Source of the DNA: Oscillospiraceae bacterium | Lineage (GTDB): Bacteria; Bacillota; Clostridia; UBA1212 | Direction: 5' to 3' | Assembly (NCBI GenBank): GCA_015069195.1 | Contig: SVJA01000002.1 | Location: forward strand, 124,001-188,000 | Length of the DNA stretch: 64,000 nucleotides | Shown: positions 24,464 to 46,454 of the stretch, one piece after another | Numbering within the stretch: the stretch's first letter is position 1 | How the letters are laid out: each line of letters starts with the position of its first letter | The notes under the pieces: generated by a model | What the model was told of the DNA's origin: nothing | The model's input: only the letters and a program-made list of their open reading frames with translations | Databases searched by the model: none | Translations under genes and position numbers: made by a program

Positions 24464-25225
24464 TTAAGAAAGCGAAATAAATTCATCAGCAAGATTCAAA
24501 TATGCTTCAGAACCTTTTGATTTCGGATCATATTTTATTATTGGAAGTCCGTAACTGGGACATTCACTGAGTTTTACATTTCTCGGTATAATAGTTCCGT
24601 AAACTTTATCTTCAAAATGACTTCTTACAGCATCTACAACCTCTACGGAAAGGTTTGTACGAATATCAAACATAGTCATTACAACACCTTCTACTTTAAG
24701 GTTCTTATTCAAATACTTCTGAACAGACTGGACAGTATCCATAAGCTGTGAAAGACCTTCCAACGCAAAGAACTCACACTGAATAGGAACTAAAACAGTA
24801 TCAGAACCTGTCAATGCATTTATTGTAAGAAGTCCGAGCGCCGGAGGACAATCTATAAAAATAAAATCATACTCATCTTTTATATGTTCTATAGCAACTT
24901 TAATCTTAGATTCGCGTGAAAATAAACTTACAAGTTCTACCTCTGCTCCTGCAAGAGAAATACTGGATGGGCATATGAAGAGATTTTCCTGTACAGTAGG
25001 AACTATAACCTCTTTAATATCCATATCGTTTATTATTACATCATAAATAGACTTTTCTGTGCTTTTTTTATCAATTCCGAGTCCTGTAGTAGCATTACCC
25101 TGTGGATCAAGGTCAATCAACAGAACTTTTTTTCCTCTGTACGCAACACATGCGCTCAGGTTAATAGAAGTTGTAGTTTTACCTACTCCGCCCTTTTGGT
25201 TAGCAACTGATATTACCTTAGCCAT
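24464..25225 (-). CDS. parA: Chromosome-partitioning ATPase ParA (Soj)
   Basis: 253 residues from the ATG at 25225, which gives the family start MAKVISVANQKGGVGKTTT; an upstream ATG at 25237 would add four residues. The deviant Walker A (KGGVGKTT), the VLLIDLDPQGNATTGLG block and Walker B (FIFIDCPPALG) define Soj/ParA. It binds nonspecific DNA as an ATP dimer and is stimulated by ParB. In spore formers Soj also acts on DnaA and, through Spo0J, on Spo0A-dependent control. A perfect parS lies in its promoter region. Confidence 0.96.
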   Translation of the reverse strand: MAKVISVANQKGGVGKTTTSINLSACVAYRGKKVLLIDLDPQGNATTGLGIDKKSTEKSIYDVIINDMDIKEVIVPTVQENLFICPSSISLAGAEVELVSLFSRESKIKVAIEHIKDEYDFIFIDCPPALGLLTINALTGSDTVLVPIQCEFFALEGLSQLMDTVQSVQKYLNKNLKVEGVVMTMFDIRTNLSVEVVDAVRSHFEDKVYGTIIPRNVKLSECPSYGLPIIKYDPKSKGSEAYLNLADEFISLS

Positions 25226-25248
25226 AAATTGTTTCATCTCTTTCCAAA

Positions 25249-25264
25249 TGTTTCACGTGAAACA
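25249..25264. promoter_or_regulatory. parS site 2
   Basis: TGTTTCACGTGAAACA, perfect, between the gyrB stop and the parA start. Confidence 0.97.
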
Positions 25265-25273
25265 TTTTTATAA

Positions 25274-27232
<1,959 letters not shown>

Positions 27233-31527: not shown

Positions 31528-31833
31528 ACAAACTTCGTAATAAAGAAGTATTCTATTTTACAGAATAAAAAATCAACCCATTGTGCCTCTTTTTTTTAGC
31601 ATACAACCGGTTGTGTTTAATCTAAAAATCTTGTCATTAGTAAAATAAAGTAAGTCCACTATAACAGAAAACCCACAGGTTTTGCAATATCAAAAAATCC
31701 CTTGGTTGACGTAAAAATTGAATAAAAAAATTTTTTTATACAACTTTTTGTAGATAAAAATCTGTGCAACAACAACATCTTGTAAAAAAAGGCAAATAAA
31801 AAAATTTTTTTATTTTTTTATGATTTTTGTTTG
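31528..31833. other. AT-rich dnaA-rpmH intergenic region, possible second origin part
   Basis: It holds one clear DnaA-box-like site (AAACCCACA, 31669-31677), the palindrome ACAACCGGTTGT near 31604-31615, and long A/T tracts (31723-31740 and 31798-31820) of the kind that melt in origins. In Bacillus the origin is split on both sides of dnaA, and this region could be the equivalent. No gene is seen in it. Confidence 0.5.
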
Positions 31834-31862
31834 TTGACATAAGACAAACCTACGGATATAAT
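31834..31862 (+). promoter_or_regulatory. Promoter of rpmH-rnpA
   Basis: TTGACA (31834-31839), a 17-base spacer, then TATAAT (31857-31862). A consensus sigma-A promoter 35 bases before the rpmH start. Confidence 0.85.
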
Positions 31863-31897
31863 ACTTCGGTAGTAGAAAAAATAGGAGGTGTTTCACG

Positions 31898-32032
31898 ATG
31901 GTTAGACCGTATCAGCCTAAAAAGAGACAGAGAAGTAAGGTTCACGGATTCAGAGCAAGGATGAGCACTGCTAACGGCAGAAAGGTTCTTAAGAGAAGAA
32001 GACAGAAAGGCAGAAAAGTTCTTTCAGCTTAA
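31898..32032 (+). CDS. rpmH: Ribosomal protein L34
   Basis: 44 residues beginning [20 protein letters not shown] and ending [18 protein letters not shown], the standard highly basic L34. A strong AGGAGGTG site precedes the ATG. It lies divergently from dnaA and is followed after 4 bases by rnpA, as in nearly all bacteria. Confidence 0.98.
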
Positions 32033-32036
32033 TTTT

Positions 32037-32471
32037 ATGAAGAGCATATCGTACAGAAAAGACAGTGCCTTTTTTAAAGATTCCGACAAAGTATTTTCTA
32101 TAAAAGATAACGATGACTTCAGAAGAATGTACAGACGCGGGACGAAAAAGGGTTGCAGATATATTGTTGTATATGTACAAAGGAATAAGCTATCTGTAAA
32201 CAGATTGGGAATTACTGTCGGAAAAAAATTCGGAAACAGCGTTCAGCGAAACCGTATGAAACGATTGATACGCGAAAACTACCGTATTTTTAATAAAGAT
32301 ATGATAAAAGGATACGATATAGTGATTGCGGCGAGGCCTTCCGTGAGGTCGGCGGCTTCGCCCAATAACAGGCTCAAAGCAGAAAGTGTTCCTAAATATT
32401 CTGATATTGAAAGCGACTTAAAAAAAGCTTTGATATCATTAGATATACTTCGTTTTAATGTAAAACAGTGA
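32037..32471 (+). CDS. rnpA: Ribonuclease P protein component
   Basis: 144 residues. The RNP motif is KFGNSVQRNRMKRLIRENYR, preceded by the FxxxYRRGTKK-like start and followed by YDIVIAARPSV. It assists the RNase P RNA in 5' processing of tRNAs. It is longer than usual at the C-terminus, with an insert (RSAASPNNRLKAESVPKYSD) before the final helix. The ATG is 4 bases after the rpmH stop. Confidence 0.95.
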   Translation: MKSISYRKDSAFFKDSDKVFSIKDNDDFRRMYRRGTKKGCRYIVVYVQRNKLSVNRLGITVGKKFGNSVQRNRMKRLIRENYRIFNKDMIKGYDIVIAARPSVRSAASPNNRLKAESVPKYSDIESDLKKALISLDILRFNVKQ

Positions 32472-32528
32472 ACGTCGTGCAGTTTTCGGCGCTCCTGTTT
32501 TTTGCATATATTGATATGTATATAAATT

Positions 32529-32738
32529 ATGAAAAAATTGTTGATATCGGGGATAAAATTTTATAAAAAGTTTATATCTCCTTTAAAAAAGCCTTGTTGC
32601 CGTTTTTATCCTACCTGTTCTACCTATGCGATTCAGGCTATAGAAAAGTACGGTGCTTTTAAGGGTACGGCGATGGCTGTATACAGGATTTTGAGATGTA
32701 ATCCGTTTTGTAAGGGCGGATATGATCCCGTAAAGTAA
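32529..32738 (+). CDS. yidD: Membrane protein insertion efficiency factor YidD
   Basis: 69 residues with the YidD signature [20 protein letters not shown], then [12 protein letters not shown] and [17 protein letters not shown] small amphipathic membrane-associated protein that aids YidC-dependent insertion. It lies in the standard rnpA-yidD-yidC order. Confidence 0.95.
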
Positions 32739-32761
32739 AAAAATTTTTGTGAGGAAAATAA

Positions 32762-33649
32762 ATGGATTTTATATCAGAGCCTTTTGGCGTAATAATGAAT
32801 TTCTTTTACAGATATGTGGCGTTTGAAAATTACGGACTTTCTATCATTCTTTTTACGCTCTTAACAAGAATAATTCTTTTCCCATTGACTTTAAAACAGC
32901 AGAAGTCAATGGCTATGACACAAGATCTCCAGCCTAAACTCAAAGAGATTAGCGATAATTACGGTGACGACAGAGAAAAACTCTCTATGGAGCAACAGAA
33001 ACTTTATCAGAAGTATGGAGTCAATCCTATGGCAGGATGTCTGCCGATGCTTATACAGTTTCCATTGATTATTGCTATTTATCAGATAGTAAGAAATCCT
33101 TTGCAGTATATTTCCGGTCTTTCTTCCGATGTAATACTTAAATTGGGACAGGCTTGGCAGACTGCGCAGGGTATTGCTGCGGATAAACTTTACAAAGCGG
33201 CAGATGCTGTAGATCAGTTGGCAGTAAACAGTCACTTCCTTTCAGCAAGCTCAGAAACACTTGCGGCAAACGGTGTAAGTGCAGGAGATTTCATAAATAT
33301 GGATTTCTTAGGCATTTTTAATTTAGGAGCAACTCCGTGGCAAGCGTTGAAAAATGTTTTTGACGGAGATTTTGCTCTTGCTGCACTTATTTTGATTCCG
33401 ATTCTCGCAACCGGTACAACATACCTTTCACAGTGGATTACAACCGGTATGAAAAAAAAGAAAAAAGAAGTTCAGGACAGCACACAGCAGGCTACAAACA
33501 CGATGCTTAAACTTATGCCTCTCATGACATTGTATTTTGCTTTTGTACTTCCTGCAGCTCTTGGTTTCTATTGGTTTATTGGTAATTTATTGTCGCTGTT
33601 GCAGACAATTATAATGAATAAATTTTTTGTTAAAAAGAAAGAAGGTTGA
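32762..33649 (+). CDS. yidC: Membrane protein insertase YidC/Oxa1
   Basis: 295 residues. Five membrane segments of the Gram-positive YidC core are seen: the first around YGLSIILFTLLTRIILFPLT, a coiled hairpin (LKEISDNYGDDREKLSMEQQ), then NPMAGCLPMLIQFPLIIAIY, and the final PLMTLYFAFVLPAALGFYW. The conserved positively charged groove residue is the Arg in LLTRIILFPLT. There is no lipoprotein signal peptide, so it is the form without an N-terminal lipobox. It inserts membrane proteins with or without SecYEG. jag follows 5 bases downstream. Confidence 0.94.
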   Translation: MDFISEPFGVIMNFFYRYVAFENYGLSIILFTLLTRIILFPLTLKQQKSMAMTQDLQPKLKEISDNYGDDREKLSMEQQKLYQKYGVNPMAGCLPMLIQFPLIIAIYQIVRNPLQYISGLSSDVILKLGQAWQTAQGIAADKLYKAADAVDQLAVNSHFLSASSETLAANGVSAGDFINMDFLGIFNLGATPWQALKNVFDGDFALAALILIPILATGTTYLSQWITTGMKKKKKEVQDSTQQATNTMLKLMPLMTLYFAFVLPAALGFYWFIGNLLSLLQTIIMNKFFVKKKEG

Positions 33650-43867: not shown

Positions 43868-44932
43868 ATGTCATCACAAAAAGCGTATCTTGTTTTGGAG
43901 GACGGAACTCGTTTTGAGGGTAAGTTCTTCGGAAATATCGAAGATGTTACAGGAGAGGTTGTATTCACTACAAAAATGATCGGATATATTGAAACTCTTA
44001 CCGATCCTGCCTATAAAGGTCAGATAGTTGTTCAGACATTTCCGCTCATCGGAAACTACGGAATCATTTCAGAAGATTTCGAAAGTGAAATTGTCGGAGC
44101 GACTGCATATATTGCAAAAGAAATTTGTGATGTTCCTTCAAACTTCCGTTGCGAAGGTGATTTAGATACATTCTTAAAGGAAAAGAAAATTACTGCACTT
44201 GCCGGTATTGATACTCGTGCTCTTACTATGAAGATCAGAACAGCGGGTACTATGAACGGTATCATCACAACTGATCCTGATAGTGTTGACTTGGCTGCTG
44301 TAAAGGCGTATAAAGTGCTTGCTGCGATTTCAGATGCTTCGACAAAGACCGTTTACAAAGAAGGCAACGGCACGAAGAATATTGCAGTTCTCGACCTCGG
44401 AATTAAAGCATCTCTTAAAAAAGATTTGATTTCGCGTGATGCGACAATTACTGTTTATCCTTACAATGCTACTGCTGAGGAAATTCTTTCTGCAAAGCCT
44501 GACGGAATTGTTCTTTCGGAAGGTCCCGAAACTTTGGACGGCATAGATAGCGTTGTTGCTGAGGTAAAGAAACTTCTTGCGTCTGATATTCCGATGCTTG
44601 GTATTGGTGTTGGTCATCAGGTTATGGCTCTTGCCTCCGGATTTAAAGTTGAGAAAATGCATCACGGTCATCGCGGCGCTAATCAGCCCTGTAAAGACAG
44701 CGTGACCGGCAGAGTATTTATTACAAGCCAGAATCACGGGTATGTTATTGATGCAGACAGCGTAAATTCTGAAGTTGCAGAAGTTCTCTTCACGAATATA
44801 AATGATAATTCTTGCGAGGGATTGGCTTACAAAAATGCTAAAGCTCTTTCCGTTCAATTCAGTGCTGATTCTTGCAGAGCTCCGCTTGAAGGTCAGATTG
44901 TGTATAACAGATTTTTTGAAATGATGAACTGA
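43868..44932 (+). CDS. CarA-like protein lacking the glutaminase catalytic residues
   Basis: 354 residues that align along the whole carbamoyl-phosphate synthase small subunit. The N-terminal domain is normal (LVLEDGTRFEGKFFG, GEVVFTTKMIGYIETLTDP, GIDTRALTMKIRTAGTMNG). In the class I amidotransferase domain the nucleophile motif GICLGHQ reads GIGVGHQ, so Cys is Gly. The catalytic GHPEA block reads QFSADS, so His is Ser and Glu is Asp. The intermediate QNHGYVID block is kept. It therefore cannot hydrolyse glutamine by the known mechanism. No carB is adjacent. It may be an ammonia-dependent, regulatory or moonlighting paralogue; a functional carAB would have to lie elsewhere. Confidence 0.85.
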   Translation: MSSQKAYLVLEDGTRFEGKFFGNIEDVTGEVVFTTKMIGYIETLTDPAYKGQIVVQTFPLIGNYGIISEDFESEIVGATAYIAKEICDVPSNFRCEGDLDTFLKEKKITALAGIDTRALTMKIRTAGTMNGIITTDPDSVDLAAVKAYKVLAAISDASTKTVYKEGNGTKNIAVLDLGIKASLKKDLISRDATITVYPYNATAEEILSAKPDGIVLSEGPETLDGIDSVVAEVKKLLASDIPMLGIGVGHQVMALASGFKVEKMHHGHRGANQPCKDSVTGRVFITSQNHGYVIDADSVNSEVAEVLFTNINDNSCEGLAYKNAKALSVQFSADSCRAPLEGQIVYNRFFEMMN

Positions 44933-45052: not shown

Positions 45053-45095
45053 TGGACATTATATACAAGGTTTATTATTATACAATATGTAAACC
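45053..45095 (+). promoter_or_regulatory. Promoter with overlapping inverted repeat, upstream of winged-helix regulator
   Basis: TGGACA (45053-45058), 17 bases, TATTAT (45076-45081). GGTTTA (45069-45074) and TAACC-containing TAAACC (45090-45095) form an inverted repeat across the -10, a plausible autoregulatory operator. Confidence 0.45.
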
Positions 45096-45157
45096 ATTCT
45101 ATGTCGACGAATAAAATTTCGCAGTTTGGGATTTAGTTCTATCATAGGAGGAAATTT

Positions 45158-46225
45158 ATGCCGGAAATAAAATTTATAAAGCGCCGCGGAATTACGGCTG
45201 ATTTGTTTAATGTTCTTTGTATGTACGCGTATTCTCCATCATTAAACGCCGTTTTTCGAGGATATAATATAAAACCAAGTGATTATCTGTGTGAAAGCTA
45301 CGCGAGAATATGTGATTTTATTGATAATAATGTAAAAGAGTTTAAACCGTTTTTTGTAAAGTCTGCTGATTCGCCCGAAGACGGAAGTATTTTTCATAAG
45401 ATTACTCAAATGCTGATGGTTCGTGATGAGGTTACAATATTTGATTTGCTCGGGTGTTTTAGAAAGATGACTCCTAAATACTTCCTGGCAGAGATTTTCA
45501 GAATAACCGAAAATCGACCGGATAGTGAAAGATGGAAGTATCTTCGTATGCTTGATAATCACGATGAAGTTGTGGAATTCATCAAAACGCAGAACTACAC
45601 ATCCAGAGAGAAAACAGCTATTAAATATTTTTATGAGGGCGGAGATGTTGCATATAAATATTTTATTTCCTTTATAGAGAAACTTTATAAAGTTGTAGAG
45701 CTGGAACATAAAATAAATGAGGAAAAGCTGTTTCTGTACACCGAGTGGTTAAAAGAACGCTTAAAGCCCGGGAAAGATGGGTATTTGTTCGAGTTAGATT
45801 CGTTTATATCACGTATGAATATACGAAATGATAGATTTATTGTGACTGTATGTTTGTTTCCGCCGTATTCTGTAAATTGTTTAGATGGTCCGGATTGTTC
45901 TGTTTTGTGTATCGGTATTGGTGCGTTTTCAGAATATGCGGAACACCATTATAATTTGCAGGATAGTAAAAGAGAGAATCCCTGCGAGATGAGGATTCAG
46001 GTTTTGAAGACATTGAATGATTCACCTAAGCGACTTATGGAAATTGCTGATGAATTGGATACGTGTTCTGCCGAGATAAGTTATCATATAGGTGCACTTG
46101 AGAAGAACGGTTTTATAAAGAGAGCGAGAAAAGACGGTCTTGAGCATTTCGAGGTATTGTCTAAGGGGAAGAATTTTATAGAAAAAAATAATTTTTCCAA
46201 AGAGGAGATTCTAAAAAACGGATAA
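45158..46225 (+). CDS. Winged-helix (ArsR-like) regulator with large unknown N-terminal domain
   Basis: 355 residues. The last roughly 75 residues form an ArsR-type winged helix: CEMRIQVLKTLNDSPKRLME, then IADELDTCSAEISYHIGALE, then KNGFIKRARKDGLEHFEVLS. The first roughly 275 residues are mostly helical, without recognised motif, and may sense a ligand or peptide. A strong AGGAGG site precedes the ATG. A 41-residue peptide gene follows after 41 bases, before any terminator, so the two look like one transcript. What it controls is unknown; its own promoter contains an inverted repeat. Confidence 0.7.
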   Translation: MPEIKFIKRRGITADLFNVLCMYAYSPSLNAVFRGYNIKPSDYLCESYARICDFIDNNVKEFKPFFVKSADSPEDGSIFHKITQMLMVRDEVTIFDLLGCFRKMTPKYFLAEIFRITENRPDSERWKYLRMLDNHDEVVEFIKTQNYTSREKTAIKYFYEGGDVAYKYFISFIEKLYKVVELEHKINEEKLFLYTEWLKERLKPGKDGYLFELDSFISRMNIRNDRFIVTVCLFPPYSVNCLDGPDCSVLCIGIGAFSEYAEHHYNLQDSKRENPCEMRIQVLKTLNDSPKRLMEIADELDTCSAEISYHIGALEKNGFIKRARKDGLEHFEVLSKGKNFIEKNNFSKEEILKNG

Positions 46226-46266
46226 TAACAGAATTCTGTAAAAATAGATTTTTCGGAGGTGTTTGT

Positions 46267-46392
46267 ATGAAAAAATGGAGTATTCCTTCGTTGGTAACTG
46301 TTTCTGCTGAAAAGCTCAGCGAGGTTATGGTAGCATCTGCTTGTACACTTTACAATGGTCAGTGCATACTTTTAAGAACCTTGGATGTATGA
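46267..46392 (+). CDS. 41-residue peptide, possible modified-peptide precursor or signal
   Basis: The ATG at 46267 has a strong GGAGGT site (46255-46260). The product starts MKKWSIPSLVTVSAEKLSEV and ends with a hydrophobic, two-cysteine part (ASACTLYNGQCILLRTLDV; the cysteines are seven residues apart). The MKKWxxP start is shared by many short clostridial open frames thought to be precursor or signal peptides; that is general recollection, not a family assignment. No modification enzyme or transporter is adjacent. The gene lies between the winged-helix regulator and a strong terminator. Translation is well supported by the ribosome site; function is unknown. Confidence 0.65.
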   Translation: MKKWSIPSLVTVSAEKLSEVMVASACTLYNGQCILLRTLDV

Positions 46393-46414
46393 TGAAACAT
46401 TACTTAGATATTTT

Positions 46415-46454
46415 GCCCAAAGCCCTGCGTGTAGCGCAGGGCTTTGGGCGTTTT
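46415..46454 (+). terminator. Strong terminator after the peptide gene
   Basis: The perfect 15-bp stem GCCCAAAGCCCTGCG / CGCAGGGCTTTGGGC (46415-46429, 46435-46449) is followed by GTTTTA. Confidence 0.85.

What the first reader, a model, noticed from the sequence alone, without database searches (positions are those of the whole stretch)
45053..46454. Regulator-peptide pair: ArsR-like protein with large unknown domain plus a 41-residue two-cysteine peptide
The peptide gene has one of the best ribosome sites in the region, follows the regulator after 41 bases with no terminator between, and is closed by a perfect 15-bp terminator stem. The regulator joins about 275 unassigned residues to a C-terminal winged helix, and its promoter has an inverted repeat over the -10. 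This could be a peptide-sensing switch, an orphan modified-peptide precursor with enzymes elsewhere, or a leader peptide. I know no described system of this layout.
Basis: partly seen in the sequence, partly recalled or inferred. Interest (0 to 1): 0.6.

Follow-up and report, generated by a model that had tools for sequence, protein, structure and literature searches.

The report
Radical-SAM peptide with its own regulator
A gut Clostridia bacterium carries a small peptide gene, very likely the raw material of an enzyme-modified peptide whose making enzymes sit elsewhere in its genome, next to the gene of a gene-control protein that may be the peptide's own receptor.

Summary
Peptide and ArsR-type regulator stay neighbours in a sister species (peptide 76% identical; dN 0.13 against 0.31 for the regulator). 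Profile searches found 24 such peptides in Clostridia: 23 lie directly 3' of a member of this regulator family, one directly 5'. In one distant genome the pair opens an overlapping operon with a PqqD-type RRE, a radical SAM/SPASM enzyme, an HprK-like protein and an S26-type peptidase, so the peptide is very likely a RiPP precursor. The window's genome has that machinery on another contig, with no precursor or regulator beside it. A third genome has one machinery locus and four pairs on four other contigs. The regulator's helical N-terminal domain (about 260 residues) has no recognised fold. Best reading: a dispersed receptor-plus-RiPP module served by one central maturation set; peptide sensing is inferred, not shown. 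The promoter inverted repeat is not conserved; a 12-bp palindrome between the genes is. Chemistry, export and target are unknown. No described system of this layout was found in the library searched.

The parts
45053..45081 (+). promoter-like site TGGACA-17-TATTAT before the regulator
   Evidence: consensus match only, not above shuffles
45069..45095 (.). inverted repeat GGTTTA-15-TAAACC over the -10; not conserved in the sister species
45158..46225 (+). regulator, 355 aa, ArsR-type one-component protein (called REG family here)
45158..45937 (+). N-terminal helical domain (residues 1-260), predicted sensor; no recognised fold
   Evidence: function inferred
45986..46135 (+). winged helix (residues 277-326)
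46228..46239 (.). perfect palindrome ACAGAATTCTGT between the genes, conserved in G001 (16 bp there); candidate operator, inferred
46255..46259 (+). ribosome binding site GGAGG of the peptide gene, conserved in G001
46267..46392 (+). RiPP precursor gene, 41 aa
46267..46335 (+). predicted leader, residues 1-23, with the conserved W4-x-x-P7
   Evidence: the leader/core border is inferred
46336..46389 (+). predicted core, residues 24-41, with Cys26, Tyr29, Cys33
   Evidence: border and modification inferred
46415..46449 (+). stem-loop, 15-bp perfect stem, likely terminator

Best explanation
The pair is a receptor-plus-ligand module of a radical-SAM RiPP system. Shown: the peptide belongs to a precursor family (W-x-x-P in the leader, A-C-[ST]-x-aromatic in the core of most members) that is linked to a maturation set: PqqD-type RRE, radical SAM/SPASM enzyme, S26-type peptidase, HprK-like protein. 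In this genome the set lies on contig C2, and the pair alone at the carA-feoAB locus. Inferred: the RRE holds the leader, the SPASM enzyme crosslinks the core, probably at Cys, the S26 peptidase removes the leader, and the product (or its precursor) binds the helical domain of the neighbouring regulator, whose winged helix then changes transcription of the pair, possibly through the palindrome between the genes. Several pairs can share one maturation set.
For: Sister G001 keeps regulator (59%), peptide (76%) and FeoA in the same order. G041/L052: overlapping operon regulator-peptide-PqqD-rSAM-HprK-S26. Own genome: two PqqD, two S26, rSAM and HprK-like on C2, no peptide or regulator there. 23 of 24 peptides lie directly 3' of a REG gene, the other directly 5'. 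Of 18 ORF hits of the first peptide model that were not among its members, 16 are adjacent to a REG gene (with for one partner); 0 such pairs in 64 other radical-SAM loci. G010: one rSAM on C18, four pairs on C35, C56, C83, C95. REG and peptide distances correlate over 22 pairs, Mantel r 0.58, 0 of 5000 permutations as high. rSAM cysteines CX3CX2C and a SPASM-like set are invariant in 6 of 6.
Against: No biochemistry; no product known. Sensing rests on pairing alone. The REG family is wider than the RiPP system: 8 long members had no peptide hit beside them, and peptide-linked REGs are not one clade. Some cluster REGs stand before rSAM or alone with no recognised peptide. G057 and G123 have peptides but no rSAM hit at E 1e-20 (72% and 86% complete). 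G019 has rSAM (cut by the contig end) and no peptide hit. The palindrome is known from two genomes only, has a second copy in G000 and is absent at the machinery.
Confidence: 0.6

Rival explanations
1. The peptide is a RiPP precursor (for example of a narrow bacteriocin) and the regulator is an ordinary local repressor that responds to another signal; it does not bind the peptide.
For: Long REG proteins also stand before an MFS-type transporter gene (L050) and in other places without a peptide hit; ArsR-type proteins commonly sense small ligands (established knowledge). L062 carries ABC transporter genes in the cluster.
Against: Four separate pairs in G010, each with its own diverged REG, are not needed for a common repressor. 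REG homologues of 271-285 aa without a recognised winged helix also stand directly before the peptide, which an ordinary repressor does not explain.
Confidence: 0.27
2. The N-terminal domain is a precursor chaperone or carrier that hands the peptide to the enzymes or sequesters the product (self-protection); DNA binding is a secondary, sometimes lost, function.
For: Domain-only proteins in L053, L054, L055 and L060 lie directly before peptide 1.
Against: Most partners keep a winged helix. A PqqD-type RRE already exists for leader binding.
Confidence: 0.1
3. The small ORF is a translated regulatory leader or a chance ORF, unrelated to the C2 enzymes.
For: Small size; followed by a strong stem-loop and feoAB.
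Against: Codon-position pattern; homologues inside an enzyme operon (L052) and beside many REG genes.
Confidence: 0.03

Closest known systems
Radical SAM/SPASM RiPP systems (sactipeptides, ranthipeptides/SCIFF, mycofactocin, PQQ)
   Same: Small precursor, RRE of PqqD type, radical SAM/SPASM enzyme. SCIFF ranthipeptides are listed as acting in quorum sensing in clostridia (passages of PMC8326336).
   Different: The rSAM reaches no NCBIfam family cut-off (best 91.5-108 bits for the four tested, cut-offs of those families 265-625); two Cys, not six; S26-type peptidase; a receptor-like gene beside each precursor; precursors dispersed.
Lasso peptide clusters with HprK-like kinase and nucleotidyltransferase (paeninodin, pseudomycoidin)
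   Same: PqqD-type protein, HprK-like protein, nucleotidyltransferase (passages of PMC7533575).
   Different: No B2-type Transglut_core3 protein in 6 of 6 genomes; a radical SAM enzyme instead.
SynChlorMet cassette (ScmC, ScmE, ScmF models)
   Same: HprK-like and radical SAM/SPASM proteins score against ScmC, ScmE and ScmF.
   Different: All scores far below cut-off; no paper with the name in the library.
Receptor-peptide gene pairs: RRNPP regulators with Phr/SHP peptides
   Same: Regulator gene followed by a small peptide gene, several pairs per genome (recalled; the Rgg/SHP and RaS-RiPP review PMC13361665 was seen only as a listing).
   Different: Here the DNA-binding part is C-terminal and ArsR-like, and the peptide is a RiPP precursor.
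TipA, a MerR-type regulator with an antibiotic-binding effector domain
   Same: A DNA-binding domain joined to an effector domain that binds antibiotics and thereby changes DNA binding (abstract and start of introduction of PMC7762955).
   Different: MerR-type HTH at the N-terminus; no cognate precursor gene beside it (recalled); no MerR or TipAS match here.

Membership tests
RiPP precursor | short conserved precursor linked to modification enzymes | tested here: met
   L052 operon and 9 further rSAM loci in which one search finds a peptide; own genome has the set on C2
RiPP precursor | post-translationally modified product | not testable with these tools
   needs mass spectrometry
RiPP precursor | RiPP recognition element among the enzymes | tested here: met
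   PqqD PF05402 over cut-off in G000, G001 and G041
Radical SAM/SPASM peptide maturase | Radical_SAM domain with CX3CX2C and C-terminal Cys-rich SPASM | tested here: met
   PF04055 1e-19; SPASM PF13186 20.4 bits, just under its cut-off of 21.5; cysteines invariant in 6 of 6
Sactipeptide, SCIFF/ranthipeptide and mycofactocin maturase families of NCBIfam | score over the family's curated cut-off | tested here: not met
   4 rSAM proteins
Lasso peptide | B2 transglutaminase-like protease (PF13471) | tested here: not met
   0 of 6 genomes
Lasso peptide | asparagine-synthetase-like cyclase in the cluster | not tested
   no such search was run; none recognised by eye in the ORF lists
SynChlorMet cassette | ScmC/ScmE/ScmF over cut-off | tested here: not met
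ArsR/SmtB superfamily (winged helix) | HTH_5 domain | tested here: met
   22.6 bits, cut-off 22; solved ArsR-type chains E 2e-16
ArsR/SmtB metalloregulator subfamily NF033788 | curated cut-off | tested here: not met
   23.6 of 55 bits
RRNPP | N-terminal HTH with C-terminal TPR-type peptide-binding domain | tested here: not met
   HTH is C-terminal and no TPR family is among the Pfam hits
TipA | MerR HTH plus TipAS domain | tested here: not met
   neither among the Pfam hits
any family of the N-terminal domain by fold | match in the PDB | tested here: inconclusive
   Foldseek best E 0.28; VIA best Z 4.0 with rmsd 17.9 over 129 residues

The most novel reading that the evidence does not exclude
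A new kind of peptide signalling: several receptor-ligand gene pairs scattered over a genome, each an ArsR-type one-component receptor with a new helical domain plus its own precursor, all matured by one shared radical SAM/RRE/S26-peptidase set, so that the signal is a RiPP and the pairs diversify together.
Probability: 0.35. Interest if true: 0.85.

Novelty: new variant of a known kind. Interest (0 to 1): 0.64.

Why it matters
RiPP mining usually looks for precursors beside the enzymes; here precursors can lie away from them and are marked by a regulator family instead, which gives a new handle for finding them. If the regulator reads the peptide, it is a genetically encoded receptor for a radical-SAM product, a class whose functions are mostly unknown, and ligand-receptor specificity becomes testable within one genome (four pairs in G010). 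An S26-type leader peptidase would also be unusual: the review of RiPP leader proteases PMC10885120 has no occurrence of 'S26', 'S24' or 'signal peptidase' in its main text (term search).

Tried and rejected
Leader peptide or chance ORF: rejected. Promoter inverted repeat as a conserved operator: not conserved. Palindrome as a link to the enzyme loci: only 2-mismatch matches in L043, as many as chance allows, and none in L044. Precursor beside the C2 enzymes: none, best peptide-model E 1.2. Lasso system: no PF13471. Known fold of the N-terminal domain: none recognised; nuclear-receptor rows at Z about 3 are not taken as meaningful. Peptide-linked REGs as one clade: not so, 6 label changes, and the deep tree is uncertain. 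Internal promoter before the peptide: none listed on the + strand in the gap. Papers: searches showed no description of this layout in their listings; the library holds open-licence PMC papers only, so this is weak evidence of absence. Papers were read as passages (PMC7533575, PMC8326336), as a term search (PMC10885120) or as abstract and start of introduction (PMC7762955); others only as listings.

Circularity and dropped rows: the peptide and rSAM models were built partly from genomes in which they were then counted; therefore the hits outside the first peptide model (16 of 18 adjacent) and the control loci (0 of 64 with a pair) are given apart. One further whole-genome hit of the first peptide model (L138, E 0.0018) gave no ORF hit. 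REG membership of the four G010 partners: first REG model E 1.4e-8, 0.0018 and 0.038 for three and no hit for the fourth; profile comparison supports the two weakest; the REG model contains all four. The Mantel test used 22 of 24 pairs: the pairs with a cut REG (L170) and a broken REG (L136) were left out.

Full report
What is there. The window holds, between a carA-like gene and feoAB, a 355-aa regulator (45158-46225) and, 41 nt later, a 41-aa ORF (46267-46392) with GGAGG seven bases before its ATG. The regulator is an ArsR-type winged helix (residues 277-326) behind about 275 residues without a Pfam match. A perfect 15-bp stem follows the peptide gene; its T tract is weak and the terminator scan did not list it.

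Is it conserved. In the only other genome of the genus that is held, G001 (one contig is JAFTXP010000017.1, a roe deer colon MAG), the order carA-regulator-peptide-feoA is kept, with 59% and 76% identity. The peptide differs at 7/4/22 first/second/third codon positions. The inverted repeat over the regulator's -10 is lost, whereas the 12-bp palindrome 46228-46239 between the genes is kept and extends to 16 bp. It occurs twice in G000 (once elsewhere) and once in G001, and not at the enzyme loci.

What the peptide is. A genome of another family, G041 (L052), has a full-length regulator homologue (19% identity), a 49-aa peptide with the same pattern, then a PqqD-like RRE, a radical SAM/SPASM enzyme, an HprK-like protein and an S26-like peptidase in overlapping frames. 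That puts the peptide in a RiPP operon. PqqD then led to the machinery of the window's own genome: on contig C2, rSAM 25066-26115, S26 26137-26466, PqqD 26474-26743, and about 5 kb off S26 31679-32194, PqqD 32154-32447, HprK-like 32441-33175 (all minus; converted from L043). G001 has the same order. Neither site holds a precursor or REG gene. So the system is split in this genus.

How general. A radical-SAM scan of one genome for each of 84,980 species returned 80 loci. In the nearest ones (L051-L066) and in loci from the peptide searches, 24 distinct peptides were found; 23 lie directly 3' of a REG gene on the same strand (gap -86 to +64 nt by the first possible start), and one (G057) 17 nt before a REG gene that is broken into two frames. 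Of 18 ORF hits of the first peptide model that were not among its eight members, 16 are adjacent to a REG gene (15 on its 3' side); the two others (L127, L139) are weak. Of 64 further radical-SAM loci (L067-L130) none has such a pair. In 391 genomes of the class, strong rSAM hits (bits 250 or more) are in 6 and peptide hits at E 1e-6 or better in 7, with 5 shared; these models were built from some of the same genomes. G057 and G123 have the peptide and no rSAM hit at E 1e-20; G019 has a cut rSAM and no peptide hit.

The most telling genome is G010 (same order): one machinery locus on C18 without peptide or REG, and four pairs on C35, C56, C83, C95. The partners there are far diverged but belong to the REG family over most of their length (profile comparison probability 97% and 96%, E 3.7e-11 and 2.5e-9 for the two weakest). 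In four genomes (L053, L054, L055, L060) the cluster holds a REG before rSAM, a REG reduced to the N-terminal domain before peptide 1, and, where the contig goes on or on another contig, a longer REG before peptide 2. REG and peptide distances correlate over 22 pairs (r 0.58, 0 of 5000 permutations reach it), which shows joint inheritance, not binding.

The proteins. rSAM: Radical_SAM domain, CX3CX2C and SPASM-like cysteines invariant in 6 of 6, no NCBIfam family cut-off reached. The S26 proteins match Peptidase_S24/S26 and archaeal-type signal peptidase models; the motifs SM.P, HR and KGDN can be read in the sequences (recalled as marks of the Ser-His type); in some genomes they are fused to a NTP_transf_5 nucleotidyltransferase, in others to PqqD. 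The regulator model has pLDDT 81; its N-terminal domain alone pLDDT 84.8, pTM 0.84, mostly helical with a small sheet, and no recognised PDB fold.

Mechanism. Precursor status is well supported (about 0.9). That the C2 set matures it is likely (about 0.85): it is the only such set found, and its rSAM is of the family that sits beside such precursors. The chemistry is open: the first core Cys and an aromatic residue three further on are nearly constant in the main group, while a second group (L058, L059, L062, L066) lacks the first core Cys (core A..S.EGIC or similar), and one G010 peptide lacks the second. Sensing by the neighbour is the simplest explanation of one regulator per precursor, four times over in G010, but it is inference (about 0.5). 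Long REG proteins without a peptide exist, one before an MFS-type gene, so the pairing may be a recruitment of an older regulator family. In most clusters no exporter was recognised by eye beside the genes; L062 has ABC transporter genes.

Known or new. The parts are known kinds; the arrangement, dispersed regulator-precursor pairs served by one radical-SAM set with an S26-type peptidase, was not found in the searches in an open-licence library. I call it a new variant of a known kind.

Noticed in passing
window 43868-44932; L002 126-1223: CarA-like protein in which the glutaminase motif reads GIGVGHQ (GIGLGHQ in G001): the catalytic Cys expected from the recalled motif GxCxGHQ is a Gly in both species, suggesting an ammonia-dependent or altered CarA.
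   Followed up: partly
L055 1403-3532, L053 6664-8799: S26-like peptidase fused to a NTP_transf_5 nucleotidyltransferase (about 710 aa) in RiPP clusters; in L058 the S26 part is fused to PqqD instead.
   Followed up: partly
L058, L059, L061, L062, L066: A second precursor group without the first core Cys (L058, L059, L062, L066), also directly beside REG genes; accessory genes differ: ABC transporter and HAD-type proteins in L062, a carrier-protein domain in L058, an FkbH-like protein in L061.
   Followed up: partly
L116, L117, L125, L127, L128: Omnitrophota, Aminicenantes and other contigs with PqqD-like, S26-like, HprK-like and several radical SAM proteins: a wider kin system without REG-peptide pairs.
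   Followed up: no
G009 contig C13 (L144, L153): A second, diverged set (rSAM, S26, HprK-like) with its own REG-peptide pair in a genome that already has a full cluster.
   Followed up: no
G000:C17:17601-17753: A third, below-cut-off PqqD-like match inside a 466-aa frame of the window's genome.
   Followed up: no
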